A stretch of 64,000 nucleotides of DNA. Source: a virus. Each line of letters begins with the position of its first letter. Position 1 is the first letter of the stretch. The stretch lies in the IMG/VR virus record IMGVR_UViG_3300014720_000003, positions 1 to 64,000 of that record; one strand, given 5' to 3'. The notes beneath the pieces are model-generated. The model was not told the origin of the DNA and did not search any database. It saw nothing but the letters and a program-made list of their open reading frames with translations. Shown here one piece after another: positions 1,292 to 35,722 of the stretch. The position numbers were made by a program, and so were the translations under genes.

Positions 1292-1649
1292 TGGTGGATG
1301 CGGCGGGAATCGAACCCGCGTCCTAGCATAAATCAAATTACATCTTCTACAAGTTTATTTTGTTCATGAGTTAAATAGGAATACAGAACAAACAAGATTC
1401 ATCCTATCTTACCAACTGCTCTTAACCTACAACCCGTTGGATATTGTAAGTGCAGAGGGATTTAACATCAGACTTTTGATCGCTACCCTCATTCGCAATC
1501 GCAGTCTGTTACTGCCCTTTTTTGTCAGGCAGCAAGTGCTAACTGATTATTGCCAGTTAAAGCATTTAGTAGACTTTTATAGTGGCCTGTCTACCAACCA
1601 CTACTTGCTAACATAACTCTCCGTATGTAGTCGAAACCTTTACGCACCC
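1292..1649 (-). ncRNA. ssrA: tmRNA (transfer-messenger RNA)
   Basis: The 3' end has a T-arm and acceptor with an encoded CCA. The 5' GGGTGCG pairs over seven positions (one G-U) with CGCATCC near the 3' end. The 5' part has AAAGGTTTCGACTAC-like tmRNA sequence. An internal frame reads ALTGNNQLALAA then TGA, a plausible tag ending in the LALAA type of proteolysis signal. It releases stalled ribosomes and tags the products. tRNA-Ile and a consensus promoter lie just upstream. tmRNA genes are known in a few phages but are uncommon. Confidence 0.93.
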
Positions 1650-24938: not shown

Positions 24939-24995
24939 CTGCCATTTTGGCTGACTAAAGCCACCCTAGCCAAATCCGTAGGATTAGGTAAAACG
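24939..24995 (+). repeat. Half GC dyad fused to TGACTA repeat, copy 5
   Basis: CTGCCATTTTGGC runs directly into CTGACTAAAGCCACC; hairpin AATCC-GTA-GGATT. Shows that the two repeat families can be joined at TTTTGGC. Confidence 0.65.
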
Positions 24996-25080
24996 GAATC
25001 TGAGGGATTCGAACCCCCGGAGGATTTTAACCCTCGGCGGTTTAGTAAACCGCTGCCTTAAACCACTCGGCCAAGATTCC
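24994..25080 (-). tRNA. tRNA-Ser (ACU anticodon)
   Basis: GGAATCT/AGATTCC acceptor, G73, long variable arm (GAGGG...CCTC) as expected for serine, anticodon arm GCGGT-TTACTAA-ACCGC. Position 34 is A where bacteria normally have GCU. Confidence 0.9.
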
Positions 25081-25689: not shown

Positions 25690-25760
25690 ACCCGATCCTC
25701 TTTGCAAGCGCCCTCTGGAAACCATACCATTTTATCGGCAAACCAGCAGCAAAACTTTAA

Positions 25761-25805
25761 CTGCCATTTTGGCAGCTCGGCCGCGCCGCCTGCCGTTTTG
25801 ACAGC
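25761..25805. repeat. GC dyad repeat, copy 4
   Basis: CTGCCATTTTGGCAG, core CTCGGCCGCGCCGC, then CTGCCGTTTTGACAG. The HNH gene end overlaps its right edge. Confidence 0.78.
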
Positions 25806-26173
25806 TATGGCTTTAGTATGCCAGCGTGGATTTCGCCGTGGCAGTTTCTACATACCAGAATACATTTATCTAGTTCTTGTTTTATTTTAACTTCATTCTT
25901 TTTAAAAGAAGTATTTCTAAAATGGCTAATCTCAAAATCTTTTTTATTTGGATCCAAGTGATGAAAATCTAAAGATCCTATATATTTATTGTAACCACAA
26001 CATACACACTTATTGCCTTTATATTCAGCACATTTCTTTTTAAAGTCTCGCTGTCTATCTAAGGTATTTTGATGATTACATTTTCTACAATAACTTTGTA
26101 TCTTACCTTTTCTAATACCTGATTTTACTTTGTATGGATTTTTTTCTATTTGACCACATTTTACACATTTCAT
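25805..26173 (-). CDS. HNH endonuclease
   Basis: About 122 aa starting MKCVKCGQIE. CVKC and CRKC zinc pairs, then KCVCCGYNKYIGSLDFHHLDP and CILVCRNCHGEIH, the usual HNH core with Cys-supported zinc. AT-rich compared with the flanking genes, consistent with insertion. Similar domain layout to the HNH at 30600. Confidence 0.87.
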   Translation of the reverse strand: MKCVKCGQIEKNPYKVKSGIRKGKIQSYCRKCNHQNTLDRQRDFKKKCAEYKGNKCVCCGYNKYIGSLDFHHLDPNKKDFEISHFRNTSFKKNEVKIKQELDKCILVCRNCHGEIHAGILKP

Positions 26174-26225
26174 AATGAACCTCATGGACAGAACATAAAT
26201 ATCTATCCATATTATACACTATAAG

Positions 26226-26298
26226 TACTGCCGGAAGGATTTGCACCCTCGTAAATCAACTTAGAAGGTTGATGCCTAATCTACTCGGCCACGGCAGC
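26226..26298 (-). tRNA. tRNA-Arg (UCU anticodon)
   Basis: GCTGCCG/CGGCAGT acceptor (G-U first pair), D-arm GCC/GGC, anticodon arm TCAAC-CTTCTAA-GTTGA, A73. The T-loop reads TGCAAAT rather than TTCAAAT, so position 55 is unusual. Reads AGA codons. Confidence 0.9.
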
Positions 26299-26301
26299 AT
26301 A

Positions 26302-26340
26302 AAAGCCGATAGCCGCTAGTATCACTACCAGCGGTCTATC
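26302..26340 (-). terminator. Hairpin terminator
   Basis: On the leftward strand CCGATAGACCGCT pairs with AGCGGCTATCGG (small bulge) and is followed by CTTTTATG. It ends the 26618-26364 gene just before tRNA-Arg. Confidence 0.65.
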
Positions 26341-26363
26341 GGTATTATAACATATTGTTATAC

Positions 26364-26618
26364 TCAGGCAACAGCCTCCGCATCCGCTTCGACCTTGCTG
26401 TTGTGGGCATCGCCAGCCTGCTTGGCTGTGACACCCGTGACGCGGGCACGCCACACCTTATCACCCTGCTCGCTGAACGCCTTGACCTCACCGGCCTTGA
26501 CGTTAGCGTGAACGTCACCCGGAAGTGCATCACTCAGGCAGGACGAAATCGAATCCACAACAGTATCACGGTCCAGTTCATCAGCAACAATATCGACAAT
26601 AAAAGAAAACTTCTTCAT
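26364..26618 (-). CDS. Unknown small protein
   Basis: 84 aa starting MKKFSFIVDIVADELDRD. GGAGGTT lies 6 nt before the ATG. Strand-helix pattern, C-terminus Ala/Val/Asp-rich (KVEADAEAVA). Regular, GC-richer codon use than the left-hand genes. Family not recognised. Confidence 0.65.
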   Translation of the reverse strand: MKKFSFIVDIVADELDRDTVVDSISSCLSDALPGDVHANVKAGEVKAFSEQGDKVWRARVTGVTAKQAGDAHNSKVEADAEAVA

Positions 26619-26660
26619 GGCAAACCTCCAAGTTAGTGTTAGTTCCAAACCAGTAAATGA

Positions 26661-26689
26661 ATCATATCACGAACCATATCACTTGTCAA
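26661..26689 (-). promoter_or_regulatory. Promoter, leftward
   Basis: TTGACA, 17-nt spacer without CGATA, TATGAT. First of two tandem promoters before 26618. Confidence 0.72.
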
Positions 26690-26750
26690 GGGGCCAATCT
26701 GAACTTTCGTAGAGTTGAGATCAGTTGGCTTCTTGTCGTGTGATGCTATC

Positions 26751-26778
26751 ATTCTACCATAGGTATCGGCACTGTCAA
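26751..26778 (-). promoter_or_regulatory. Early promoter, leftward
   Basis: TTGACA, 16-nt spacer with CCGATAC, extended TGG-TAGAAT. Second of the tandem pair. Confidence 0.8.
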
Positions 26779-26803
26779 CCGCCCTACATGAATATTTTTT
26801 GGG

Positions 26804-26845
26804 TGCCATTTTGGCAGCTCGGCCGCGCCGCCTGCCGTTTTGGCA
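26804..26845. repeat. GC dyad repeat, copy 5
   Basis: TGCCATTTTGGCAG, core CTCGGCCGCGCCGC identical to copy 4, then CTGCCGTTTTGGCA. Confidence 0.8.
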
Positions 26846-26857
26846 TTTGGCTTTATG

Positions 26858-27214
26858 CTAGGCGTTCAGTACCCAACATTCACAACCACAAGCGGTCAAC
26901 TCGGCACTCAGTTTCTCAGCCACTTCCTGAGACAGTGGCGGCGTGAAATTGGCCTTTGAGTCGTACTGGCAACTCTCCACCCATTCCTTACTTTCCTTGA
27001 GTCCCCAGCCAGTAGCAAGCCTGAGAGCCTTGATGGCGGGAATCTTGTGATCCCAAAACTGACCATCAAAACGCACACCCCTGCAACCCACAAGTCGCTT
27101 CACATTACCCGTTGCCTCTTCCAGAGCCTTGATGATTCTCTCGTACAGATCGGGGCTATCGGTGTTAGAAGCCATACTCACCATCTCACGAATCGTCATA
27201 CCAATACTAATCAT
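26858..27214 (-). CDS. Protein with ribosomal L7/L12 C-terminal-like domain
   Basis: 118 aa. KIPAIKALRLATGWGLKESKEWVE matches the helix-turn pattern of the bL12 C-terminal domain (K-x-x-V-I-K-x-V-R-x-x-T-G-L-G-L-K-E-A-K). In bL12 this surface recruits translation factors. The N-terminal bL12 dimerisation domain is not evident; an unrelated helical start and a short Cys-containing tail surround it. Phage bL12-like proteins have been reported, so modulation of host translation is possible. Confidence 0.75.
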   Translation of the reverse strand: MISIGMTIREMVSMASNTDSPDLYERIIKALEEATGNVKRLVGCRGVRFDGQFWDHKIPAIKALRLATGWGLKESKEWVESCQYDSKANFTPPLSQEVAEKLSAELTACGCECWVLNA

Positions 27215-27618
27215 GTTCTTTCCTCCAAAACGTAAACTTGTTTGCCTTGTGTAATCAGAGAGTCATATTGGGAATCGTCCCATGCGAACTCGCCACAATC
27301 TGATTCTCTACGCCACCTAATATCTTTGATGGGATTGTAATACAACTTCTCAAGGTCGTCAACACCAATCTCATTATTTATGATAACCGTATCACACTTT
27401 ACCCAACCAGCCACATCCTTCACACCAGCCTCATGAACTTTCTTAGCCTTATTCACTTTATTTACCAGTTTGCAACTCAACATCTCTAACTGATAAAGAG
27501 CCGGATCATAATAAAACTCTTGAAGTTTCTTTCTGCCACACATGGCCTTGACTTGCCAGTGCATATAGTTTGGCCCACGAGCCAGATGAAATCGTACTTC
27601 GTAGTGTGTTCGTGTCAT
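27211..27618 (-). CDS. Unknown basic protein
   Basis: 135 aa, starting MTRTHYEVRFHLARG. Basic first half, KVNKAKKVHEAGVKDVAGW in the middle. ATGA overlap with the L7/L12-like gene. The -10 box ends only 6 nt before the ATG, so the message may be leaderless. No recognised family. Confidence 0.62.
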   Translation of the reverse strand: MTRTHYEVRFHLARGPNYMHWQVKAMCGRKKLQEFYYDPALYQLEMLSCKLVNKVNKAKKVHEAGVKDVAGWVKCDTVIINNEIGVDDLEKLYYNPIKDIRWRRESDCGEFAWDDSQYDSLITQGKQVYVLEERT

Positions 27619-27624
27619 GCGACT

Positions 27625-27653
27625 AGTATACCTTATCGGTTATTGGTTGTCAA
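27625..27653 (-). promoter_or_regulatory. Early promoter abutting a start codon
   Basis: TTGACA, 17-nt spacer with CCGATAAGG, TATACT, then six bases and the ATG at 27618. Confidence 0.8.
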
Positions 27654-27665
27654 GACTATACACTT

Positions 27666-27712
27666 TCGCTGACTATCGCCAAGACCGCAAATCCGTAGGA
27701 TTAGGAAAAACA
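27666..27712 (+). repeat. TGACTA repeat, copy 6
   Basis: CGCTGACTATCGCCAAG, hairpin AATCC-GTA-GGATT, end GGAAAAACAGG. Its end forms the 3' arm and U-tract of the structured RNA at 27704-27831. Confidence 0.65.
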
Positions 27713-27831
27713 GGATGGGCGGCACCTATTCCTACCCCTGCTTTCGCAGTCTCGGAGGCCACATGGAAGTTGCCTTCGCTCTGTTGTGCTTTGCCTCGTC
27801 ATACGGTAAACCGTCGCCCATTCCTGTTCTA
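27704..27831 (-). ncRNA. Structured non-coding RNA with own promoter and terminator
   Basis: No reading frame. Transcription would begin near 27831, just below a TTGACA/TATACT promoter. GAACAGGAATGGGCG at the 5' end pairs with CGCCCATCCTGTT at the 3' end (one bulge), followed by UUUUU. Inside: ACGG-TTTA-CCGT, GAGGC/GCCTC, GAAG-GCAA-CTTC and CTGC-GAAA-GCAG, the last two with GNRA loops. Looks like a compact folded RNA. CAACAGAG and the GNRA hairpins recall parts of RNase P RNA, but I cannot find its catalytic core. Confidence 0.65.
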
Positions 27832-27837
27832 TTGAGA

Positions 27838-27866
27838 AGTATATCCTTATAGATCGGCATTGTCAA
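27838..27866 (-). promoter_or_regulatory. Promoter for the structured RNA
   Basis: TTGACA, 17-nt spacer with CCGATC, TATACT. Confidence 0.78.
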
Positions 27867-27879
27867 TAGGATTCTTTAG

Positions 27880-27922
27880 TGCCATTTTGGCAGGCGGCGC
27901 GGCCCATCTGCCGTTTTGGCAG
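27880..27922. repeat. GC dyad repeat, copy 6
   Basis: TGCCATTTTGGCAG, core GCGGCGCGGCCCAT, then CTGCCGTTTTGGCAG. Confidence 0.78.
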
Positions 27923-27935
27923 CGTGGGTTTTGTT

Positions 27936-28400
27936 TTATGCTTCTACTTCATCAGTAAAAAACTCGTCAAGGTTGTAATCTTCCCACACTCTAACAGGAA
28001 TCACACCCTTATTATTTCCATATTCCGTACACAGATCTTCACCATCATGCCAGATACCACAATAGCCTATTCCAGGCTCAAAATAACTAGCATCAACCAT
28101 AAAGCCCAACCTATCCAACTCCTCATACAATCCAATGGGAGGACTCCACGCACTATCAAAACTCATGGTAGCCTCATTATCCACAACCGTAGGATTCAAC
28201 CCGTGAACTTCACCATTATCACTACCAATATCCCACTTGGTTCCCCAGTTCTCGATATTCCAGTCGTACCAATCTTCACCCTCTGGCATCGGCAAATAAT
28301 GTTCACAAGCCTTACCCTCCTTGAAGGCATGAACAAACTCCATAACCTTAGACCGATCCTCATGGCTAATCTTCAACTTGTTCAAGCACCAGTTTGGCAT
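27936..28400 (-). CDS. DUF1281-like protein
   Basis: About 154 aa starting MPNWCLNKLKISH. YLPMPEGEDWYDWNIENWGTK and a FDSAWSPPIGL block match what I recall of the DUF1281/YubB family, which has a ferredoxin-like fold and occurs on plasmids and phages. Function unknown. A longer frame upstream would reach into the promoter, so the internal ATG is taken. Confidence 0.78.
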   Translation of the reverse strand: MPNWCLNKLKISHEDRSKVMEFVHAFKEGKACEHYLPMPEGEDWYDWNIENWGTKWDIGSDNGEVHGLNPTVVDNEATMSFDSAWSPPIGLYEELDRLGFMVDASYFEPGIGYCGIWHDGEDLCTEYGNNKGVIPVRVWEDYNLDEFFTDEVEA

Positions 28401-28450
28401 TGTATCCTCAGTTGTTGCAAGGAATAGACTTTTCCACACACTTTTCAACT

Positions 28451-28479
28451 ATTCTACTACCCGTACTATCGGTTGTCAA
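28451..28479 (-). promoter_or_regulatory. Early promoter for the DUF1281-like gene
   Basis: TTGACA, 17-nt spacer with CCGATAG, TAGAAT. Confidence 0.8.
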
Positions 28480-28952
28480 GCGACCAAAACTTTGCCAAAA
28501 ATCTTTTTTCCCACATGCAAATCTCTGTGGCTATATTTAGAACCAACATATTTAGCAACAGTTCTAGTATCCATAACCCTAGCGGTCAAACCCTCTGGAC
28601 TAACAAACACCATAACCAGTTTGTGAAAGTTATTGGGGCAAATATGCTGAAACTTATAAGTATACTTGATTATTCCACCAACAATGGTCATTCTGGCTAG
28701 ACTAGACTTGACCTCAATCTTGCGACCATTCACAAGCATATCAAAAGAGTGAGTACCACCAATATAAGAAACAGTGTGACCAGCATCCTTATAATAATCC
28801 CTAATCATCCGTTCAATCACACCACCCCTATACTGACTACTCATCCTAGACAATCTATAGGCTAACAGATTCTTTTTCGGGCAAAAAATACTTTTCTTGT
28901 GGAATCCACGAACTTCGCCCAAAACCTTATCCAAATGAGTTGTAGTAAACAC
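28476..28952 (-). CDS. PD-(D/E)XK nuclease-like protein
   Basis: 158 aa with a GTG start preceded by AAGGAG. GGTHSFDMLVNGRKIEVKSS gives Asp, then Glu-x-Lys spaced as in restriction-endonuclease-like folds (residues about 71-83); an upstream helix (GGVIERMIRDYYKD) has the usual Glu. Such proteins cut DNA or repair branched DNA. No partner methyltransferase is nearby, so a host-DNA or recombination role is more likely than restriction. Confidence 0.72.
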   Translation of the reverse strand: MFTTTHLDKVLGEVRGFHKKSIFCPKKNLLAYRLSRMSSQYRGGVIERMIRDYYKDAGHTVSYIGGTHSFDMLVNGRKIEVKSSLARMTIVGGIIKYTYKFQHICPNNFHKLVMVFVSPEGLTARVMDTRTVAKYVGSKYSHRDLHVGKKIFGKVLVA

Positions 28953-28971
28953 AGCGATCTCCTTTGGGCGT

Positions 28972-28999
28972 ATTCTAATACTAAATATCGTCTTGTCAA
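28972..28999 (-). promoter_or_regulatory. Early promoter for the nuclease-like gene
   Basis: TTGACA, 16-nt spacer with ACGATAT, TAGAAT. Confidence 0.78.
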
Positions 29000-29014
29000 C
29001 AGATAAAACCTTAT

Positions 29015-29057
29015 TGCCATTTTGGCAGTTGCCGCGGCCGGCCTGCCATTATGGCAG
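29015..29057. repeat. GC dyad repeat, copy 7
   Basis: TGCCATTTTGGCAG, core TTGCCGCGGCCGGC, then CTGCCATTATGGCAG. The stop codon and last residues of the 29049-29294 gene lie within it. Confidence 0.8.
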
Positions 29058-29294
29058 GGGATCATTGTCGGACATTTTCCAGCCCGCGGCCCTTACAATA
29101 CTTTTAGTGGCTATTACATTCGTGGACGGATCAGCACTAACATAATCTCTATACCCTCTTTCATCAACATAAAAATATTCGTCGATAGTATCAAACTTAT
29201 TACAATCTGCTAATCCACAAATAGCGGCCTCTAGAGCATCTTTGCGACTAATAATAATACGCAAAGTACCTGATGCTACATAAAACTTGGACAT
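29049..29294 (-). CDS. Unknown small protein ending inside a repeat
   Basis: 81 aa, MSKFYVASGTLRIIISRKDA start, alternating strands and helices, DERGYRDYVSADPSTNVI in the middle. The stop codon TAA is supplied by the right palindrome of the GC dyad repeat, so the repeat determines the C-terminus. No recognised family. Confidence 0.6.
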   Translation of the reverse strand: MSKFYVASGTLRIIISRKDALEAAICGLADCNKFDTIDEYFYVDERGYRDYVSADPSTNVIATKSIVRAAGWKMSDNDPLP

Positions 29295-29305
29295 TGTAAT
29301 ATCCT

Positions 29306-30010
29306 TTAGTGAGCAGGAAATAACACGTTAGCCAGACCACGCACGCACAAGTCACAAGATATACTATCTTTAGTACCAGTGCAAGTAATAGTAGCACGAC
29401 CACGACGAATCTCGGGACATGTCACAAACTTAGCACCATTCAGCACTACAAGTTTGGGCAGACTAGACCGCCAAGCATCCGCCTTTTTCTTGCCTCGCGG
29501 ACGCTTTGGAGCAATCTTTTCATCACTGTCGCACCACGCGAACAACTTGAACCCTTGGGACAGAGCCTCGCCCATATCGTTATCGTCGTGAACACTAGCA
29601 TAGACCGCCATATACTTTTCCAGACTAACAAGCCGACTATCATAAATATGGGTATAAAACCACATATTGGGCAGACTATCACCATCAGCAAGAATACTCT
29701 CACACGCCCATGTCACATTAGCAACATACTCTACGTCAAGTTCGCCATTGAGAAACCAATCACCACGCTCATGCCAGCGAATACTCTTTTCACGACGCTT
29801 CGCGTCCAGAATCATAGCACGGATTTTGTTTTTCTCCGTGACTATGTTAGCAAACCCTGCTGTACGGGCATTTTTATACTGATTCTCGGTAGCCTCGGCA
29901 TAGCAGCCGTTGCCGAGATAGTCACAATCGGGCGGACAAGTATCGCCAACGGGACGCGACACCACAATGCAACCCTTGCCCAACTTGTCATTACCGTCTG
30001 CGGTTTTCAT
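29306..30010 (-). CDS. Cys-rich phage protein, family unknown
   Basis: About 234 aa starting MKTADGNDKLGKGC, which is below the promoter at 30033-30060. CPPDCDYLGNGCYAEATENQ near residue 24 resembles the Cys-rich start of phage proteins that look distantly like radical-SAM or DUF5131 families. CDLC and other Cys are at the C-terminus. A metal or Fe-S site is likely. Regular GC-richer codons. I cannot name the family with certainty. Confidence 0.65.
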   Translation of the reverse strand: MKTADGNDKLGKGCIVVSRPVGDTCPPDCDYLGNGCYAEATENQYKNARTAGFANIVTEKNKIRAMILDAKRREKSIRWHERGDWFLNGELDVEYVANVTWACESILADGDSLPNMWFYTHIYDSRLVSLEKYMAVYASVHDDNDMGEALSQGFKLFAWCDSDEKIAPKRPRGKKKADAWRSSLPKLVVLNGAKFVTCPEIRRGRATITCTGTKDSISCDLCVRGLANVLFPAH

Positions 30011-30032
30011 ATTTGTTTCTCCGTGTCTCTCG

Positions 30033-30060
30033 ATTCTACAGTGTGGTATCGGCTTGTCAA
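30033..30060 (-). promoter_or_regulatory. Early promoter, leftward
   Basis: TTGACA, 16-nt spacer with CCGATAC, CTG-TAGAAT. Confidence 0.82.
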
Positions 30061-30092
30061 CACACAAACTTGAGCATAAAAAAGATTTTGTT

Positions 30093-30108
30093 TGGCACAA
30101 GGTTTGCT
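30093..30108 (+). promoter_or_regulatory. Sigma-54-like motif
   Basis: TGGCAC-N5-TTGC-T, which fits the -24/-12 consensus spacing. No ORF follows on this strand; see findings. Confidence 0.3.
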
Positions 30109-30111
30109 CGT

Positions 30112-30196
30112 TGCCATTTTGGCAGGCCGGCCGGCCGAGCTGCCATTTTGGCTGACTATCGCCACGACTGCCAAATCCGTAGGATTAGGAAAGACA
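30112..30196 (+). repeat. GC dyad repeat copy 8 fused to TGACTA repeat copy 7
   Basis: TGCCATTTTGGCAG, core GCCGGCCGGCCGAG, CTGCCATTTTGGC, running into CTGACTATCGCCACG with hairpin AATCC-GTA-GGATT and end GAAAGACAA. Confidence 0.78.
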
Positions 30197-30199
30197 AAT

Positions 30200-30270
30200 A
30201 GCCCCACGGAGGATCGAACTCCGATCTCCGGGATGAAAGCCCGGTATACTAAACCATTATACTATGGGGC
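30200..30270 (-). tRNA. tRNA-Glu (UUC anticodon)
   Basis: GCCCCAT/GTGGGGC acceptor, anticodon arm CCGGG-CTTTCAT-CCCGG, T-arm CGGAG-TTCGATC-CTCCG. Co-transcribed with the 56-aa gene upstream. Confidence 0.94.
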
Positions 30271-30274
30271 CAGA

Positions 30275-30445
30275 CTACTTATTATACTGTGGATCAACAA
30301 TCCTCTCAATCCAAATATTCTTACCAAACTTATCTTGTGCTTTTCTCATAGCATCAAACTCGCTCAATGCAACAACATAACCAGCAAACCGATTGTTGCT
30401 GAAAACACGCCAAGTATAGCCAGCATAGCAGAAAGTAGTATTCAT
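30275..30445 (-). CDS. Small protein, 56 aa, probable leaderless message
   Basis: Starts MNTTFCYAGYTWRVFSNNRF; FDAMRKAQDKFGKNIWIERI follows. The -10 box of the promoter at 30452-30479 ends six bases before the ATG, so the transcript probably begins at the start codon. Ends immediately before tRNA-Glu. No recognised family. Confidence 0.62.
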   Translation of the reverse strand: MNTTFCYAGYTWRVFSNNRFAGYVVALSEFDAMRKAQDKFGKNIWIERIVDPQYNK

Positions 30446-30451
30446 GAGCGT

Positions 30452-30479
30452 ATTCTACTATAGAGTATCGGTCTGTCAA
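30452..30479 (-). promoter_or_regulatory. Early promoter abutting a start codon
   Basis: TTGACA, 16-nt spacer with CCGATAC, TAGAAT. Confidence 0.82.
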
Positions 30480-30493
30480 CAGAGATTCTTTAC

Positions 30494-30535
30494 TGTCATT
30501 TTGGCAGATATCGCGGCCGGCCTGCCATTTTGGCA
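30494..30535. repeat. GC dyad repeat, copy 9
   Basis: TGTCATTTTGGCAG, core ATATCGCGGCCGGC, then CTGCCATTTTGGCA. Confidence 0.78.
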
Positions 30536-30550
30536 TATTTGTTACTTATT

Positions 30551-30558
30551 GGTGTATA
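30551..30558 (+). promoter_or_regulatory. Candidate late promoter for HNH
   Basis: GGTGTATA followed by TATAG, 42 nt before the HNH start at 30600. Confidence 0.4.
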
Positions 30559-30599
30559 TATAGTTATATCAGTAACAACTATACAAAAGGAATGCTAAA

Positions 30600-31046
30600 A
30601 TGTCTACCAAAAAAAGTTCTCGTTATGAATATCATAAACAGTGGAGAGAAAAGAATAAAGAAAAGAAAAAACTTAATGATAAAGTTTGGTATGAAGCTAA
30701 CAAAGAAAAATGTATTTTAAATAGAAAAAAATACAATGAAGCCAATAAAGAAAAAATAAAACTATATAATGAGACTAGAAGAAAAAATAACTATAACCAA
30801 TATTATTTGTTTATGAAAGATAAAAAATGTAATAGGTGTGGTTATTCTGATTATAGAGCCTTGGTTTGGCATCATATTGATCCAACTACAAAAAAATCAG
30901 ATATATCTGATATTGTGAGAGCGGGTAGGCAGTGGGAAGTTATCTTAGAAGAAATATCTAAATGTGAATGTTTATGTCAAAACTGTCACCATATAGAGCA
31001 CCATCCACACAAAAAACCCATCCGAGTTTCCTCAGATGGGTCTTAG
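30600..31046 (+). CDS. HNH endonuclease
   Basis: 148 aa, rightward. A highly charged Lys/Glu/Asn/Tyr N-terminal half precedes CNRCGYSDYRALVWHHIDPT and CECLCQNCHHIEHH, the HNH core. AAAGGAATG upstream is a ribosome site. AT-rich, unlike the GC-richer genes either side. The last codons form one arm of the terminator of the opposite gene. Confidence 0.88.
   Translation: MSTKKSSRYEYHKQWREKNKEKKKLNDKVWYEANKEKCILNRKKYNEANKEKIKLYNETRRKNNYNQYYLFMKDKKCNRCGYSDYRALVWHHIDPTTKKSDISDIVRAGRQWEVILEEISKCECLCQNCHHIEHHPHKKPIRVSSDGS
31013..31042 (-). terminator. Intrinsic terminator
   Basis: On the leftward strand GACCCATCTGAG-GAAA-CTCGGATGGGTT with T residues following. Ends the 31073-31477 gene and overlaps the 3' end of the HNH gene. 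Confidence 0.8.
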
Positions 31047-31072
31047 TAGGATAGTATTTTACTATATTTGAT

Positions 31073-31477
31073 TTACAGAAACATTCTCGCCAATCCGGTA
31101 TTGAACATAAAACTTCCAAGAAGAGGACGCCGCACATTACGGGTACGCTCCGCATAGAAGTTCCGAATCTTCCCGTCAAAAGTCTGAGCCGTAACAAGAT
31201 GCTTGCTACGCTGAAACTCAGGATCATTGCGACGATACCGACTAGTACGGTTCAGTCGAGCAATCCAATCATCAGAGAATACGCTTACGTCCAGAACCTT
31301 GGCCATAAACCGCTCACGATCACCCGTGACAGGCTGCACATACTCAAAGTTATACACACCACCAACCTTGGCGTTGGTCAGACTATCGTGAAGACCAGAA
31401 AAAAGATGAAAGCACACAAAAGCCACAACACCAGCAACCAACCCACAACCAATCGCAATCATAGTCATCGTATCCAT
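31073..31477 (-). CDS. Membrane-anchored unknown protein
   Basis: 134 aa. Hydrophobic N-terminus (MIAIGCGLVAGVVAFVCFHL) acts as an anchor or uncleaved signal. The rest is basic: VYNFEYVQPVTGDRERFMAKV, then many Arg (RLNRTSRYRRNDPEF, RTRNVRRP). The middle resembles a small SH3-like barrel. One gene, one promoter, one terminator. Confidence 0.65.
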   Translation of the reverse strand: MDTMTMIAIGCGLVAGVVAFVCFHLFSGLHDSLTNAKVGGVYNFEYVQPVTGDRERFMAKVLDVSVFSDDWIARLNRTSRYRRNDPEFQRSKHLVTAQTFDGKIRNFYAERTRNVRRPLLGSFMFNTGLARMFL

Positions 31478-31523
31478 AGCATTAGCCTTTCGTTTAGGAA
31501 TCTTACCTTCTTACCATACGCCG

Positions 31524-31551
31524 ATTCTACAGTATGTTATCGGCTTGTCAA
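31524..31551 (-). promoter_or_regulatory. Early promoter, leftward
   Basis: TTGACA, 16-nt spacer with CCGATAAC, CTG-TAGAAT. Confidence 0.82.
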
Positions 31552-31577
31552 GCGGCTATCCTTGAGAAAATCTTTCT

Positions 31578-31618
31578 TGCCATTTTGGCAGATCGGCCGG
31601 CCCGCCTGCCATTTTGGC
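31578..31618. repeat. GC dyad repeat, copy 10
   Basis: TGCCATTTTGGCAG, core ATCGGCCGGCCCGC, then CTGCCATTTTGGC. Confidence 0.78.
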
Positions 31619-31629
31619 GGTTGTATTGT

Positions 31630-31731
31630 ATGAGGCGGGAGAATCACTCCGCTTAGACCTTTATTTCAGTAAAGATGATGAGTCTTTACCTAGTCTACGT
31701 ATTCCACGGTTTTACCCGTATAGAACCTCAT
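31630..31731 (-). ncRNA. Cloverleaf-like structured RNA, 3' member of a pair
   Basis: ATGAGGT pairs with GCCTCAT, like a 7-bp acceptor. Within it: TCTA..CGG/CCG..TAGA; a long arm AGAC/GTCT containing GTAAAGA-CTCATCA-TCTTTAC, whose 7-nt loop reads like an anticodon loop with CAU; and GCGGAG/CTCCCGC with a 5-nt loop where a T-arm would be. No reading frame. Too long in the D-arm region and without a TTCRA loop, so not a normal tRNA. Confidence 0.55.
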
Positions 31732-31740
31732 ATTGTATTG

Positions 31741-31852
31741 GTCGTGGTGGGGACGCGATCCCCCATAGATTAGGCATTGGCTCCTAGTGCATAAGCGGCA
31801 CAGCCGTCACCAATGGCTTATCCCAATCTAGTCCCGAGCCATGAACCCACGA
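31741..31852 (-). ncRNA. Structured RNA, 5' member of a pair
   Basis: TCGTGG near the 5' end can pair with CCACGA at the 3' end. Inside: TAGATT/AATCTA, CATTGG/CCAATG and CGGC-TGT-GCCG nested in one long arm; a hairpin TGGGG/CCCCA; and ATAAGC/GCTTAT, which would make a pseudoknot with the long arm. No ORF. It begins about 20 nt below the promoter at 31877-31904. Confidence 0.55.
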
Positions 31853-31876
31853 ATTTTTGTTTTGTCTTACTCCATC

Positions 31877-31904
31877 ATTCTACACTCTAGTATCGGCTTG
31901 TCAA
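31877..31904 (-). promoter_or_regulatory. Promoter for the RNA pair
   Basis: TTGACA, 16-nt spacer with CCGATAC, GTG-TAGAAT. No protein gene lies between it and the next promoter. Confidence 0.82.
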
Positions 31905-31915
31905 CCCCCGAAACT

Positions 31916-32173
31916 TTACTTTTGCAAGTATTCGATTTCCTGGCCGTTAGCGATCATGGAAGCATACAGTTCGATGCGACGATCCTTTTCCCGCTTTTCG
32001 ATTTGATGATCCGTTTCGATTCTGTCGCGTCGGTCACACTTAGCATCCAATTCGGCCAGCGTCACACCATCGGTGCGATTATCGCGGAAGTCCTCGGGCA
32101 GCCAACTATTCGGCACCACGATGCAATCTTTGATAATCCGCTCAAACTCCGCCATCAGTTCGTAGCCGTTCAT
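31916..32173 (-). CDS. Unknown small helical protein
   Basis: 85 aa starting MNGYELMAEFERIIKDC. Followed by a very charged helix (ELDAKCDRRDRIETDHQIEK). GGAGGAAACC lies just upstream. No recognised family. Regular GC-richer codon use. Confidence 0.65.
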   Translation of the reverse strand: MNGYELMAEFERIIKDCIVVPNSWLPEDFRDNRTDGVTLAELDAKCDRRDRIETDHQIEKREKDRRIELYASMIANGQEIEYLQK

Positions 32174-32195
32174 GGTTTCCTCCGTTGTTGTATGG

Positions 32196-32223
32196 ATTAT
32201 ACAGATGGAAAAGGGCTTGTCAA
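32196..32223 (-). promoter_or_regulatory. Early promoter, leftward
   Basis: TTGACA, 16-nt spacer with no CGATA (AGCCCTTTT), CTG-TATAAT. Confidence 0.78.
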
Positions 32224-32239
32224 CTCGACAAAAATCAGT

Positions 32240-32255
32240 AGCAAATACTGTGCCA
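32240..32255 (-). promoter_or_regulatory. Sigma-54-like motif
   Basis: TGGCAC-N5-TTGC on the leftward strand, overlapping the left palindrome of the adjoining dyad repeat. Confidence 0.3.
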
Positions 32256-32293
32256 AAGTGGCAGGCCGGGCGCGCCACCCGCCATTATGGCAG
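32251..32293. repeat. GC dyad repeat, copy 11
   Basis: TGCCAAAGTGGCAG, core GCCGGGCGCGCCACC, then CGCCATTATGGCAG. The left arm has changed on both sides (AAA/AGT) yet stays a palindrome. Confidence 0.76.
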
Positions 32294-32304
32294 ATGGTCT
32301 TTTT

Positions 32305-32382
32305 TTAGATTAGGGATAGAAAGTAGGTCATAACAATAAAACCCACCAGGAATCCCACAAATCTTACAATATTTTCAATCAT
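32305..32382 (-). CDS. Membrane micro-protein, 25 aa
   Basis: MIENIVRFVGFLVGFIVMTY, almost entirely one hydrophobic helix. Start overlaps the stop of the next gene upstream. Third of a tandem trio. Confidence 0.42.
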   Translation of the reverse strand: MIENIVRFVGFLVGFIVMTYFLSLI

Positions 32383-32482
32383 TATTTTCCCTCATTGGAA
32401 AAACCAAATCAGAAACAAACCAACAACCAACAACACCAGCAACAAATCCCACACCTATTTGTACCCAGTTTATATCGGCCAT
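32375..32482 (-). CDS. Membrane micro-protein, 35 aa
   Basis: MADINWVQIGVGFVAGVVGC start with one hydrophobic helix and a charged tail. AGGGGCTAGGG precedes the ATG. Second of a tandem trio. Confidence 0.48.
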   Translation of the reverse strand: MADINWVQIGVGFVAGVVGCWFVSDLVFPMRENND

Positions 32483-32497
32483 CCCTAGCCCCTTTCT

Positions 32498-32590
32498 TTA
32501 GTCTAAGATGTTTTCCACAAAGAATAATACGGTTTTGACCATAATAACCAGTATTAGAAAACCCACAACTCCAAATAATAGACCTATCAT
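32498..32590 (-). CDS. Membrane micro-protein, 30 aa
   Basis: MIGLLFGVVGFLILVIMVKT then a short acidic tail. ATGA overlap with the upstream 32587-32898 gene strongly suggests translation. First of a tandem trio. Confidence 0.5.
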   Translation of the reverse strand: MIGLLFGVVGFLILVIMVKTVLFFVENILD

Positions 32591-32898
32591 CCTTGCACCA
32601 CCATATTTTCCATAAAAGGATATTCCTTGCCGTTGATTCTCACAAACCATTCGTACTTCCGCTGGTACACTCTCACCGGGCTATACTGGTTGATTCTATC
32701 CTTAGTTGTGACCGTTTGCCATCCCCCCGTTTGCAGGGTATAGGTATTGTCGGGATGAATCTTCACAACATAGGTACTGTGCAGCATAATACCAACGCTA
32801 TTATCATGCAGGATTTCAGCGTATGTATTATTACCAATCTTCCGCCGGCTCTTATTACGCTTGCCGCGAACCATGCTAACCGCTTCGTTGTAATTCAT
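32587..32898 (-). CDS. Conserved phage/plasmid protein of unknown function
   Basis: 103 aa. RRKIGNNTYAEIL, VVKIHPDNTYTLQTGGWQTV and TTKDRINQYSPVRVYQRKYE are features I recall from a small protein family common in phages and mobile elements. All-beta, with repeated short strands. No assigned function. Confidence 0.75.
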   Translation of the reverse strand: MNYNEAVSMVRGKRNKSRRKIGNNTYAEILHDNSVGIMLHSTYVVKIHPDNTYTLQTGGWQTVTTKDRINQYSPVRVYQRKYEWFVRINGKEYPFMENMVVQG

Positions 32899-32987
32899 CA
32901 GAAAAGTTCCCCGTATCCGTGAAGGTAATCGTACACCCTAACACTCACACAATAACCTATCAAACCGAAAAACGCAAGAGCAATCAT
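32898..32987 (-). CDS. Membrane micro-protein, 29 aa
   Basis: MIALAFFGLIGYCVSVRVYD start: one hydrophobic helix and a polar tail. The stop overlaps the next start (TGATG). The promoter at 33013-33040 is just upstream. Confidence 0.5.
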   Translation of the reverse strand: MIALAFFGLIGYCVSVRVYDYLHGYGELF

Positions 32988-33012
32988 GCTTCGTTCCCTT
33001 GTTGTATATCGG

Positions 33013-33040
33013 TATTCTACAGCCCAAAGTTTAGTTGTCA
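33013..33040 (-). promoter_or_regulatory. Early promoter, leftward
   Basis: TTGACA, 16-nt spacer without CGATA, CTG-TAGAAT. Heads the five-gene unit 32987-32305. Confidence 0.78.
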
Positions 33041-33058
33041 AACGGAGAAAATATTTTT

Positions 33059-33100
33059 GCCATTTTGGCAGATCGGGCGCGCCGCCTGCCATTTTGGCAG
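33059..33100. repeat. GC dyad repeat, copy 12
   Basis: TGCCATTTTGGCAG, core ATCGGGCGCGCCGC, then CTGCCATTTTGGCAG. Followed at 33,101-33,180 by several C-run/G-run hairpins. Confidence 0.8.
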
Positions 33101-33147
33101 AGACCCCTCATTGGTGGGGGAGCGGCACCATACCCCTTAGTGGGGGG

Positions 33148-33522
33148 TTATTCCCCATCCCACCCAAAGGGGGAGACTTCCTCTCCACTGGCGAGAATCG
33201 CACCATACTGTTCGGCCAAGGCCGCTTTCCGCTCATCGCAACCGGGCTTGCCCACCTTGATAATCATCGTATCATCACCCCCCTTGTAGCGGGGGTCAAC
33301 CCTCTCAACCTTACGCTTGCCCACGCGACGTAACGCCTTGCGATTGAACTTGAGAACCTTTTCGGTCATCACCTTACGCTGTCGATCACCGACCCCGTAA
33401 ACATAGTCTACGCCGTCGATCACCCGATCATCGGAAACGTCGATAGCGTCGGGGATAGCGATTCCATAGAGCCAGTTGATGATAGCACGCTGAAAATCAC
33501 GCAGAATCGGACTAGTTGACAT
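33148..33522 (-). CDS. Unknown basic protein
   Basis: About 124 aa starting MSTSPILRDFQRAIINWLYG. IDGVDYVYGVGDRQRKVMTE precedes a basic segment (KALRRVGKRKVERVDPRYK), then an Ala-rich C-terminal helix. Might bind nucleic acid. Family not recognised. Confidence 0.6.
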   Translation of the reverse strand: MSTSPILRDFQRAIINWLYGIAIPDAIDVSDDRVIDGVDYVYGVGDRQRKVMTEKVLKFNRKALRRVGKRKVERVDPRYKGGDDTMIIKVGKPGCDERKAALAEQYGAILASGEEVSPFGWDGE

Positions 33523-33592
33523 GATGCTTTGCTCCAAAGGATTACTGACTGTACCAAAAAACTTTTTTGACCACAACCCCCATTCTGGGGGA

Positions 33593-33802
33593 CTACCATC
33601 CATTCTGTCGACAAGTCTCATCCCACGAATCCTGTTCACGACGCTGGCGGTCACTCATCGGCTCGTCACCCGGGCACCATTCATCTTTAGCAGCATCGTA
33701 GGCATCGTCGGAATAATCGTACGATCCAACTTCACAATGTTCGCCACAACGCGAGCAAATATCCTGAAACCGAACTTCCGCACCACAGCAATCACTCAGC
33801 AT
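33593..33802 (-). CDS. Small zinc-ribbon protein
   Basis: 69 aa. DCCGAEV and CSRCGEHCEVG give a compact zinc ribbon in the first 25 residues; the rest is acidic and Trp/Arg-rich. Phage proteins starting MLSDCCGAEV are common and of unknown role. Confidence 0.7.
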   Translation of the reverse strand: MLSDCCGAEVRFQDICSRCGEHCEVGSYDYSDDAYDAAKDEWCPGDEPMSDRQRREQDSWDETCRQNGW

Positions 33803-33839
33803 TTTTCACTCTCCGTTTCTTTCTTTCTTTCTATATCGG

Positions 33840-33867
33840 ATTATACGGTCTGAAACTTGAAAAGCAA
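33840..33867 (-). promoter_or_regulatory. Early promoter, TTGCTT type
   Basis: TTGCTT, 16-nt spacer, CCG-TATAAT. No CGATA. The upstream 40 bp match those of the next three promoters. Confidence 0.65.
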
Positions 33868-33899
33868 ACCGAAAAAAATCGGGAGAGAAAAATATTTTG

Positions 33900-33915
33900 T
33901 GGCACAATATTTGCT
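33900..33915 (+). promoter_or_regulatory. Sigma-54-like motif
   Basis: TGGCAC-N5-TTGC-T. A weaker copy, TGGTAC-N5-TTGC-T, follows at 33926-33941. Confidence 0.3.
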
Positions 33916-33945
33916 GGCGCGATTTTGGTACAAGATTTGCTAGCC

Positions 33946-34036
33946 TGCCATTTTGGCAGTTCGCGCGGCCGATCTGCCATTTTGGCAGTCTGGCTGACTG
34001 TCATTATGGCAGCCAGCCGATAGGATCGGCTAGAAC
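33946..34036 (+). repeat. GC dyad repeat copy 13 with TGACTA repeat copy 8
   Basis: CTGCCATTTTGGCAG pair around TTCGCGCGGCCGAT, then CTGGCTGACTGTCATTATGG, and hairpin AGCCGAT-AGG-ATCGGCT ending AGAACA. Confidence 0.75.
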
Positions 34037-34103
34037 ACCCCCCTAGAGGGGTAGAGCCCCACCCCCCCCTATTGGTGGGGATACCCCCACGTACATTTGT
34101 TCA

Positions 34104-34301
34104 CTACTTAGCGTGAATGAACACCCGTTCACTCACCGTACGAGCGGTCAACGTAATGATCCAGTTATTACCGCTACCATCCTCCCGCACGATTCCGTTC
34201 ACCAATCCACAGTGAGCCTTACCCTTGGGATCAATCACTCCAACATACTTACCAGTTCGCATAGCGGAAAAAATCTTATCAAGGTTATTTGTGTTCATCA
34301 T
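34104..34301 (-). CDS. Unknown small beta-barrel-like protein
   Basis: 65 aa. YVGVIDPKGKAHCGLVNGIV and NNWIITLTAR suggest a small SH3-like barrel. It is the second gene of cassette 1 (promoter 34667, paralogue gene 34366, hairpin, this gene). Function unknown. Confidence 0.6.
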   Translation of the reverse strand: MMNTNNLDKIFSAMRTGKYVGVIDPKGKAHCGLVNGIVREDGSGNNWIITLTARTVSERVFIHAK

Positions 34302-34323
34302 TCTTTATTCCTTCACGGGTAGT

Positions 34324-34338
34324 CCCCCAACGGGGGGA
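34324..34338 (-). repeat. C-run/G-run intercistronic hairpin
   Basis: CCCCC-GTTG-GGGGG type hairpin between the two genes of cassette 1; the same hairpin lies at 35159-35174. Confidence 0.6.
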
Positions 34339-34365
34339 GGGTTGGTCCTTCCATCCATCGGGGGG

Positions 34366-34623
34366 TCAACCCGCCCCGACACTCTCCAGCATATCGCGGC
34401 GGGTCTTACCCTCGGGCCAGTATTCGGTGACGATGCACGTGTAGTGGTGCATGTTCTCCATGTAGAACGTCTTATACTCGGTCGTGCCGTTGGGGCCGAC
34501 ACTGTGGAGAACAACCCGACGACCCTTGGGGCCGTCGACCACACTCTCCACCACGCCGACGAACAGCCGATCATCACTCTTGCGAAAGCCACAGAACGCA
34601 CGACCAACAACCACGTTATCCAT
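34366..34623 (-). CDS. Cassette paralogue A
   Basis: 85 aa starting MDNVVVGRAF. The pattern VGxAFxGFR, FVGxVESV, PKGxxxVLH, YKxFYxExM, C..T..WPxGxTR is shared with the protein at 35750-36028, so they are paralogues; the first half looks like a beta barrel. AAGGA lies 8 nt upstream of the chosen ATG. No family recognised. Confidence 0.68.
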   Translation of the reverse strand: MDNVVVGRAFCGFRKSDDRLFVGVVESVVDGPKGRRVVLHSVGPNGTTEYKTFYMENMHHYTCIVTEYWPEGKTRRDMLESVGAG

Positions 34624-34666
34624 TTTCATCATCCTTCAACTAGGGGTTATCTTCAACTCTGCCACG

Positions 34667-34694
34667 ATTATACAGTAGAGTATCGGTAAAGCAA
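34667..34694 (-). promoter_or_regulatory. Early promoter, TTGCTT type
   Basis: TTGCTT, 16-nt spacer with CCGATAC, CTG-TATAAT. Confidence 0.72.
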
Positions 34695-34727
34695 ACGGAA
34701 AAAAATAGAGGAAATATTTTTGCGATT

Positions 34728-34743
34728 TGGCACAGGATTTGCT
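34728..34743 (+). promoter_or_regulatory. Sigma-54-like motif
   Basis: TGGCAC-N5-TTGC-T; second copy TGGCAT-N5-TTGC-T at 34766-34781. Confidence 0.3.
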
Positions 34744-34744
34744 G

Positions 34745-34876
34745 TTGCCAATTTGGCAGGGATTTTGGCATGATATTTGCTGCATCTGCCATTTTGGCAG
34801 TTCGCGCGGCCGATCTGCCATTTTGGCAGCTTGGCTGACTGTCATTATGGCAGCCGATAGGATCGGCTGATACACC
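34745..34876 (+). repeat. GC dyad repeat copy 14 with TGACTA repeat copy 9
   Basis: An extra TTGCCAATTTGGCAG, then the pair CTGCCATTTTGGCAG around TTCGCGCGGCCGAT, then TTGGCTGACTGTCATTATGG and hairpin AGCCGAT-AGG-ATCGGCT. Confidence 0.75.
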
Positions 34877-34939
34877 CCCCCTGAGAGGGGTAGAGCCCCA
34901 CCCCCCTATTGGTGGGGATACCCCCCTCGGTGGGGGCCA

Positions 34940-35137
34940 CTATTTGGTGGGGGTAGTTCCTATCCTCAACCCCTCCCCCCTTTCCAGTCTCCTGACTAGA
35001 TAATCGTAGTCGTCCGTTCTGAACAATTGAACACCATCGGTATTTTTCACGAGCCATTCCCGACAATGCCCGGTCCAACGGCTGTCGATTTGCAGATTGT
35101 GACGATTTGCGAGGATTTGTAGCGTAGCGTTGGTCAT
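34940..35137 (-). CDS. Unknown small protein
   Basis: 65 aa starting MTNATLQILANRHNLQID. RTDDYDYLVRRLERGEGL at the end. AAGGAAAAAATC precedes the ATG. Second gene of cassette 2. G-run/C-run hairpins lie on both sides. No recognised family. Confidence 0.62.
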   Translation of the reverse strand: MTNATLQILANRHNLQIDSRWTGHCREWLVKNTDGVQLFRTDDYDYLVRRLERGEGLRIGTTPTK

Positions 35138-35158
35138 GATTTTTTCCTTAGGGGTTAG

Positions 35159-35174
35159 TCCCCCAACGGGGGGA
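35159..35174 (-). repeat. C-run/G-run intercistronic hairpin
   Basis: CTCCCCCC-GTT-GGGGGAC between the two genes of cassette 2, matching 34324-34338. Confidence 0.6.
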
Positions 35175-35204
35175 GAGTATGATTGTTCCCGCCGTTGTCC
35201 AGAA

Positions 35205-35426
35205 TCACGAGATATCGACATTCCAGTATTCTACGTTGTCGCACTCGTCGAGATAGAGCGTAGCATACTTAGTCTGCTTCCACTCCCGATCCCAGTTTGC
35301 GACCACGATCATGATGCCACGATCACCCATGTCGCGGACCTTTTCGATCCATCCGTCGAAATACTTGCCGTCGCGGCGACGAGTGGCGAAAAACTGCTGG
35401 AGGGGCTTCGGGGTATCGGCAATCAT
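35205..35426 (-). CDS. Cassette paralogue B (diverged)
   Basis: 73 aa starting MIADTPKPLQQFFATRRRDG. RRDGKYFDGWIEKVRDMG and KYATLYLDECDNVEYWNVD occupy the same positions as the barrel and YKxFYxExM parts of the A-type proteins. The leader, promoter and following hairpin are clearly homologous to cassette 1, which also decides the start. Confidence 0.6.
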   Translation of the reverse strand: MIADTPKPLQQFFATRRRDGKYFDGWIEKVRDMGDRGIMIVVANWDREWKQTKYATLYLDECDNVEYWNVDIS

Positions 35427-35472
35427 GTTTCTATCTTTCTCTGCTAGGGGTTTCATTCTCAACTCTGCCATT

Positions 35473-35500
35473 GTTATATCATCTAGTATCGGCAAATCAA
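35473..35500 (-). promoter_or_regulatory. Early promoter, TTGATT type
   Basis: TTGATT, 16-nt spacer with CCGATAC, TATAAC. Confidence 0.65.
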
Positions 35501-35533
35501 ACGGAAAAAAACAGCGGAAATATTTTTGCGATT

Positions 35534-35549
35534 TGGCATGATATTTGCT
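35534..35549 (+). promoter_or_regulatory. Sigma-54-like motif
   Basis: TGGCAT-N5-TTGC-T. Further copies at 35585-35600 (TGGCAT) and 35668-35683 (TGGCAC). Confidence 0.3.
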
Positions 35550-35605
35550 AGGGCAAAAACTGTGCCGAAAAAATTTTTGCGATTTGGCATGATATTTGCT
35601 GCATC

Positions 35606-35722
35606 TGCCATTTTGGCAGTTCGCGCGGCCGATCTGCCATTTTGGCATGTGTCTGCCATTTGTTGTATGGCACAACATTTGCTACTGCCGTTATGGCAGT
35701 TTTCTAGCCTGCCAGTTTGGCA
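35606..35722. repeat. GC dyad repeat, copy 15, with extra palindromes
   Basis: Pair around TTCGCGCGGCCGAT, then single palindromes CTGCCGTTATGGCAG (35685) and CTGCCAGTTTGGCAG (35709). Their loops differ while arms stay paired. Confidence 0.76.

What the first reader, a model, noticed from the sequence alone, without database searches (positions are those of the whole stretch)
31630..31852. Two adjacent structured RNAs, one cloverleaf-like, in place of a gene
The promoter at 31877-31904 transcribes no protein. Two compact RNAs follow. The first in the transcript (31741-31852) has nested arms and a possible ATAAGC/GCTTAT pseudoknot. The second (31630-31731) has a 7-bp acceptor-like stem, three internal arms and a CAU-containing 7-nt loop, but no T-loop. 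These are not standard tRNAs. They might mimic tRNA, act as anticodon-nuclease bait, or be unknown ncRNAs.
Basis: partly seen in the sequence, partly recalled or inferred. Interest (0 to 1): 0.72.

Follow-up and report, generated by a model that had tools for sequence, protein, structure and literature searches.

The report
Phage RNAs built on tRNA-like scaffolds
A freshwater-type phage makes, from a strong promoter with no protein behind it, an RNA whose outer arms are arranged like a tRNA but whose anticodon arm is replaced by a knotted domain; related phages carry dozens of copies of it alongside many other undescribed structured RNAs, which points to an unexplored set of RNA tools in phages.

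Summary
The first RNA (RNA1, 31742-31852, minus strand) is real. It belongs to a conserved RNA family found in at least 40 uncultured phage contigs (45 copies aligned). The family has no Rfam, tRNA or INPHARED match and gave none in two GTDB pattern scans. Covariation supports a four-way cloverleaf: acceptor-like P1, D-arm-like P2, T-arm-like P4. In the anticodon position sits a pseudoknotted three-way-junction domain. Natural chimeras show that outer shell and inner domain are exchanged as separate modules. Copies lie in arrays of many further unnamed structured RNAs joined by CAATACAA linkers, including a true tRNA body with swapped anticodon arms.

The second RNA (RNA2, 31630-31731) follows the same linker and folds as a closed four-way junction, but no relative was found, so its structure is unproven.

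Neither is an ordinary tRNA, intron-bearing tRNA or coding gene.

Best guess at function: a stable trans-acting RNA. The tRNA-like shell would give processing and stability, and the inserted domain would bind a host protein as inhibitor or decoy. The scaffold is shown by comparison; the target and any anticodon-nuclease link are inference.

The parts
31877..31904 (-). promoter TTGACA-16-TAGAAT driving the RNA unit
   Evidence: 11 of 12 consensus positions; same spacing as most promoters of this region
31742..31852 (-). RNA1 (family F1): four-way cloverleaf-type RNA with a pseudoknotted domain where a tRNA has its anticodon arm; this copy lacks the variable P6 hairpin
   Evidence: profile without window E=2e-15; CM 84 bits; covariation over 45 copies
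31847..31852 (-). P1 5' strand (acceptor-like), UCGUGG
   Evidence: pairs with 31742-31747; helix 1 100% paired with both-sided changes
31742..31747 (-). P1 3' strand, CCACGA
31831..31846 (-). P2 hairpin (D-arm-like): GUUC(31843-31846)/GGAC(31831-31834)
   Evidence: first three pairs kept in all copies, one of them with a single wobble
31824..31829 (-). P3 5' strand; pairs with 31767-31772; sits where the anticodon stem would be
   Evidence: one pair G-C<->A-U with 12 both-sided cells
31767..31772 (-). P3 3' strand
31816..31821 (-). pseudoknot 5' strand AUAAGC
   Evidence: pairs with the P7 loop; C-G in 25 and G-C in 17 copies at the variable pair
31791..31796 (-). pseudoknot 3' strand GCUUAU in the P7 loop
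31810..31815 (-). P5 5' strand CAUUGG; pairs with 31775-31780
   Evidence: five of six pairs of this helix have compensatory changes; closest relative has UAUCGG/CCGAUA
31775..31780 (-). P5 3' strand CCAAUG
31787..31801 (-). P7 hairpin GUGC-loop-GCAC carrying the pseudoknot loop
   Evidence: all five family pairs have compensatory changes; closest relative has GAGC/GCUC
31749..31764 (-). P4 hairpin (T-arm-like)
   Evidence: helix 7, 91% of cells paired, two pairs with both-sided changes
31732..31741 (-). linker CCAATACAAT between RNA1 and RNA2
   Evidence: ATACA present just downstream in 30 of 43 F1 copies
31630..31731 (-). RNA2: predicted closed four-way junction, no relative found
   Evidence: fold z=-2.5; no homologue
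31676..31682 (-). RNA2 7-nt loop CUCAUCA on an 8-bp stem
   Evidence: fold, coordinates
31621..31629 (-). second linker ACAATACAA after RNA2
   Evidence: sequence
27712..27838 (-). further structured RNA of the same phage (family F9) behind its own promoter at 27866
   Evidence: profile hit and relatives in L024, L040, L049; single-sequence fold z=-3.45

Best explanation
RNA1 is a stable, trans-acting phage RNA. Its outer part (P1, P2, P4) is a tRNA-like shell: a compact four-way junction whose P1/P4 stack resembles the acceptor/T-arm half of a tRNA. In place of the anticodon arm it carries a pseudoknotted three-way-junction domain with invariant unpaired bases. The shell most likely lets the RNA be cut out of a longer transcript and protected like a tRNA. 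The inserted domain most likely binds a specific host protein, acting as inhibitor or decoy, probably early in infection. RNA2 is probably a second unit of the same array, cut at the same linkers. Shown by comparison: noncoding transcript unit, cloverleaf pairing, pseudoknot, modular exchange of insert and shell, array context. Inferred: processing, stability, protein target and counter-defence role.
For: Covariation: 39 pairs, 96.9% of cells paired (shuffles 86.5%), 164 both-sided changes (shuffles 51, slid controls at most 40). Modular exchange: L013 and L032b share 93 of 95 inner positions but only 25 of 48 outer ones, and the 5' and 3' outer halves, including D-type and T-type loops, swap together. 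In class A the T-type hairpin has a 7-nt UGCGAWU loop on a 6-bp stem which, with 6-bp P1, gives 12 bp, the tRNA figure (read from the alignment). The same arrays hold F11, a clear tRNA body (D- and T-arm conserved) with exchanged or expanded anticodon arm. Copies lie in multi-RNA arrays with recurrent linkers; many of the records also carry real tRNAs.
Against: No expression or processing data. CCA after P1 is not conserved (19 of 44 copies, my tally). No tRNA covariance match even at E = 10. No protein partner or defence link was found: T4-type RNA ligase gave no hit (but the control genomes gave none either), and PF09414 ligase is above cut-off in 4 of 18 records and absent from this phage by that search. 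Some copies sit just ahead of small ORFs, so a cis role is not excluded. D-loop/T-loop coupling could partly reflect shared descent.
Confidence: 0.4

Rival explanations
1. RNA1 is a pseudoknot inhibitor or decoy of a host toxin or defence nuclease in the manner of type III antitoxin RNAs or RNA anti-CRISPRs, and the tRNA-like outside is only for stability. It differs from the main reading in that no tRNA-handling protein need be involved.
For: Conserved pseudoknot with invariant unpaired bases; accessory, highly variable arrays; RNA anti-CRISPRs show that phages use solitary RNAs this way (PMC10651486, abstract).
Against: No host partner known; no copy found in GTDB genomes with the two patterns used, where a mimicked host RNA might have been expected; arrays mix it with tRNA bodies.
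Confidence: 0.25
2. RNA1 works in translation, e.g. as a charged or ribosome-bound tRNA/tmRNA-like molecule.
For: tRNA-like arm order; tmRNA also replaces the anticodon arm by a helix and has pseudoknots (established knowledge); many of the same phages carry tRNAs and this one also a tmRNA.
Against: No anticodon, no conserved CCA, usual D- and T-loop sequences absent in class B; no conserved tag ORF.
Confidence: 0.12
3. RNA1 and similar units are cis-acting leaders or riboswitches of downstream genes.
For: In several relatives an ORF with a ribosome-binding site follows the array directly.
Against: Here a separate promoter (31551-31524) precedes the next gene; downstream units differ among relatives; P1 is closed and no conserved expression platform was seen.
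Confidence: 0.1
4. They are inert spacers or processing/terminator elements of the transcript.
For: Linkers and arrays look like processed polycistrons.
Against: Strongly conserved unpaired bases and pseudoknot inside RNA1 exceed what a spacer needs.
Confidence: 0.06
5. An ordinary tRNA interrupted by an intron, or a chance fold.
For: Arm order resembles tRNA.
Against: ARAGORN and Rfam negative, so no group I intron match either; covariation far above controls rules out chance for RNA1. Chance remains possible for the drawn structure of RNA2.
Confidence: 0.02

Closest known systems
GOLLD and ROOL RNAs
   Same: Phage- or prophage-encoded structured RNAs of unknown function, often near tRNA islands (PMC12286853)
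   Different: RNA1 family members are 109-157 nt, closed by an acceptor-like stem, no Rfam match; many GOLLD members exceed 800 nt and both GOLLD and ROOL assemble into cages
T4 stable RNAs C and D (species 1 and 2)
   Same: Small stable RNAs made from a phage tRNA cluster, function unknown (from my own knowledge; rnaD listed as an auxiliary stable RNA in PMC5931544)
   Different: Sequence not compared here beyond an INPHARED search with an F1 copy that gave only chance-level matches; no large families or arrays of this kind known to me
tRNA and tmRNA
   Same: Order of arms (acceptor, D, inserted domain, T); class A T-type loop of 7 nt on a 12-bp stack; tmRNA likewise lacks an anticodon arm and has pseudoknots (established knowledge)
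   Different: No anticodon, no conserved CCA, no tag ORF, no Rfam tRNA/tmRNA match even at E = 10
Type III antitoxin RNAs and RNA anti-CRISPRs
   Same: Small RNAs that inhibit a protein by structure or mimicry (PMC10651486 for Racrs; ToxI from my own knowledge)
   Different: No repeat mimicry or toxin gene seen; a works-like comparison only

Membership tests
tRNA | match to the tRNA covariance model or ARAGORN | tested here: not met
   no hit for either RNA, none at E<=10
tRNA | 7-nt anticodon loop on the third arm | tested here: not met
   RNA1: pseudoknotted domain instead. RNA2 has a CUCAUCA loop but on a long irregular arm
tRNA | T-arm with 7-nt T-loop and 12-bp acceptor/T stack | tested here: inconclusive
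   class A copies fit (UGCGAWU, 6+6 bp); class B, including the window, has AUNGCRU and a less regular stem
tRNA | CCA end | tested here: inconclusive
   encoded CCA follows P1 in 19 of 44 copies only (tally); enzymatic addition not testable
tmRNA | tag reading frame and tmRNA model match | tested here: not met
   only 1292-1649 matches tmRNA
any Rfam 15 family | score above gathering or E<=10 | tested here: not met
   RNA1 and RNA2 none at E<=10; in ten array loci only tRNA and Pistol ribozyme at gathering threshold
GOLLD/ROOL | sequence/structure model match | tested here: not met
   both are Rfam families (PMC12286853 took their profiles from Rfam); no match
T4 RNA C/D | sequence similarity | tested here: inconclusive
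   blastn of an F1 copy against INPHARED gave only chance matches; the T4 genes were not compared one by one
riboswitch or leader | constant position before one gene type with an expression platform | tested here: not met
   downstream units vary among relatives and here a separate promoter follows
type III antitoxin / RNA anti-CRISPR | binding and inhibition of a toxin or Cas protein | not testable with these tools
   needs experiment

The most novel reading that the evidence does not exclude
A phage lineage carries a bank of many exchangeable RNA effectors, several of them tRNA shells whose anticodon arm is replaced by a functional insert, co-transcribed and cut apart like tRNAs, and used in trans against host defences. 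It would be an RNA counterpart of anti-defence protein islands.
Probability: 0.3. Interest if true: 0.9.

Novelty: new variant of a known kind. Interest (0 to 1): 0.66.

Why it matters
Phage genomes are usually read for proteins and standard tRNAs. Here a whole class of compact, conserved RNAs fills gene-sized slots and has no entry in Rfam. The natural chimeras make a clear, testable prediction: shell and insert are separate modules, and the tRNA-like shell is a general carrier for RNA effectors. That would bear on why phages keep tRNA arrays and on how they counter tRNA-directed defences.

Tried and rejected
ARAGORN and Rfam on the window and on RNA1/RNA2 alone, down to E=10: nothing. BLAST against INPHARED phages with the window, with an F1 copy and with a rich array: only chance matches. 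Two pattern scans of GTDB genomes: none, so no host copy or prophage was found with those patterns (they would miss copies as divergent as the window's own). RNA2 homologues: two IMG/VR pattern scans gave only unrelated contexts and a search of 48 related records gave only matches of 14-19 nt. Hidden peptide: a 21-codon frame at 31777-31712 has AGGAG before it, but the start is absent in the other copies. RNA repair as a partner: PF09511 no hit, uninformative because the controls were silent too; PF09414 above cut-off in 4 of 18 records, no hit here. Host: terminase and helicase relatives are only about 25% identical and spread over many hosts, so no host is named.

Full report
What is in the window. 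The window is part of a 138,480-base IMG/VR phage record. The region 24-34 kb is made of small minus-strand genes, most preceded by a TTGACA-16/17-TANNNT promoter. The promoter at 31904-31877 is followed by no ORF of 40 aa or more on its strand before the next promoter at 31551. Its transcript would hold RNA1 (31852-31742), the linker CCAATACAAT, RNA2 (31731-31630), a second linker and a palindromic intergenic repeat.

RNA1 by itself. Single-sequence folding is only mildly significant (z = -2.0) and cannot show the pseudoknot. ARAGORN and Rfam find nothing in either RNA, and INPHARED has no similar DNA.

Relatives. The neighbouring 134-aa gene led to six related loci. In several of them a piece of RNA1 is found at another place. 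A 16-base core (GACTAGATTRGGATAA) scanned over IMG/VR gave 69 stretches; most of them show the whole RNA, the rest look like chance. A covariance model was then run over loci and over 42 whole records, 41 of which carry one or two copies (most of these records were picked because they carry the core, so this is not a frequency). The record most like the window by neighbouring genes, G001, has a copy at 76525-76633 that was not used in building the model; it also lacks the P6 hairpin, like the window. A sequence profile built without either of these two finds the window copy at E = 2e-15.

Structure. In 45 aligned copies (43 distinct), 39 pairs in seven helices were counted. 96.9% of cells pair, against 86.5% in shuffles; both-sided changes number 164 against 51; sliding one strand gives at most 40. 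The alignment was fitted to a model of the nested helices, but not of the pseudoknot. The pseudoknot pair 37/114 is C-G in 25 and G-C in 17 copies. P5 has five and P7 five compensating pairs. Between the window and G001 alone P5, P7 and the pseudoknot all change in a compensating way. The variable P6 hairpin ranges from absent to tens of nucleotides. The layout is P1, P2, then a P3/P5 helix with the pseudoknot strand between, a three-way junction with P6 and P7, then P4 and back to P1. This is the arm order of a tRNA, with the anticodon arm replaced by a larger domain.

Shell and insert. Two kinds of shell exist. In class A a short P2 loop (UAGC) always goes with a P4 loop UGCGAWU; in class B, P2 loops such as AUGC go with AUNGCRU, where AUGC could pair with GCRU (the pairing is an inference). 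L013 (class A) and L032b or L005 (class B) have inner domains 97-98% identical, yet their shells match at only 25 of 48 and 28 of 44 positions, and both shell halves differ together. So shell and insert are exchanged as modules, and the two shell halves belong together.

Array context. Around the copies lie about fifteen other recurrent or single units, many closed by a terminal stem and separated by CAATACAA-type linkers. The commonest, F2 (53 hits), has compensating changes in a hairpin near its 3' end. F11 is plainly a tRNA body with conserved D- and T-arms, but the stretch where the anticodon arm should be varies from about 28 to 55 nt. Apart from tRNA-like matches and Pistol ribozymes, nothing in ten such loci matches Rfam at gathering threshold. 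The window itself also holds F9 (27712-27838) behind its own promoter.

RNA2. Closed junctions of at least 6 bp with three or more arms occur in 71 of 31,950 same-length stretches of the window. No relative was found. It is probably another array unit because it has the same linkers on both sides, but its structure is unproven.

Function. Steps shown: noncoding unit with promoter, conserved cloverleaf and pseudoknot, exchange of modules, array context. Steps inferred: release from the transcript, tRNA-like stability, and binding of a host protein by the insert. Phages are known to use tRNAs and small RNAs against host defences: tRNAs insensitive to anticodon nucleases (PMC10264068), the T5 tRNA-Lys that neutralises PARIS (PMC11455837), and RNA anti-CRISPRs (PMC10651486). 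This makes a decoy or inhibitor role the most likely one, but no partner has been identified. The absence of an anticodon loop in RNA1 speaks against plain anticodon-nuclease bait.

Verdict. RNA1 is a member of a new, well-supported RNA family with an unusual tRNA-like shell; RNA2 is plausible but unproven. The mechanism stays open.

Noticed in passing
window 27712-27838 (-): A further structured RNA (F9) with its own promoter at 27866; relatives stand next to F1 in L024, L040 and L049.
   Followed up: partly
window 25745-35648, about 12 places: Intergenic repeat: two copies of the palindrome TGCCAAAATGGCA around a GC-rich palindromic stretch (GGCCGGCC, GCGCGCC and similar) after many genes. 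Role unknown.
   Followed up: no
window 24939-24999, 27661-27716, 30140-30200: Repeat with TCCTAATCCTACGGATTTG and GTCAGC found behind RNA genes, also in relatives; may be a 3' element.
   Followed up: no
L044:3889-3951, L013:5102-5164: Pistol self-cleaving ribozymes a little upstream of the phage tRNA-Arg gene.
   Followed up: no
L038:5309-5408, L018:7019-7116, L023:8013-8114, L013:1055-1129: tRNA body with exchanged or expanded anticodon arm (F11) in the same arrays.
   Followed up: partly
L009:6894-6968, L034:8633-8710, L046:6648-6725: ARAGORN reports tRNA-like genes with 4-nt or 2-nt anticodons inside RNA arrays.
   Followed up: no
window 30600-31046 (+) and 25805-26185 (-): Two small proteins that look by eye like HNH homing endonucleases (CxxC and HH motifs), one on the strand opposite to its neighbours.
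   Followed up: no
window 1292-1649 (-): Phage-encoded tmRNA with tag GNNQLALAA.
   Followed up: no
L103:11515-14895 (-): Ribonucleotide reductase interrupted by an intein with a LAGLIDADG domain.
   Followed up: no
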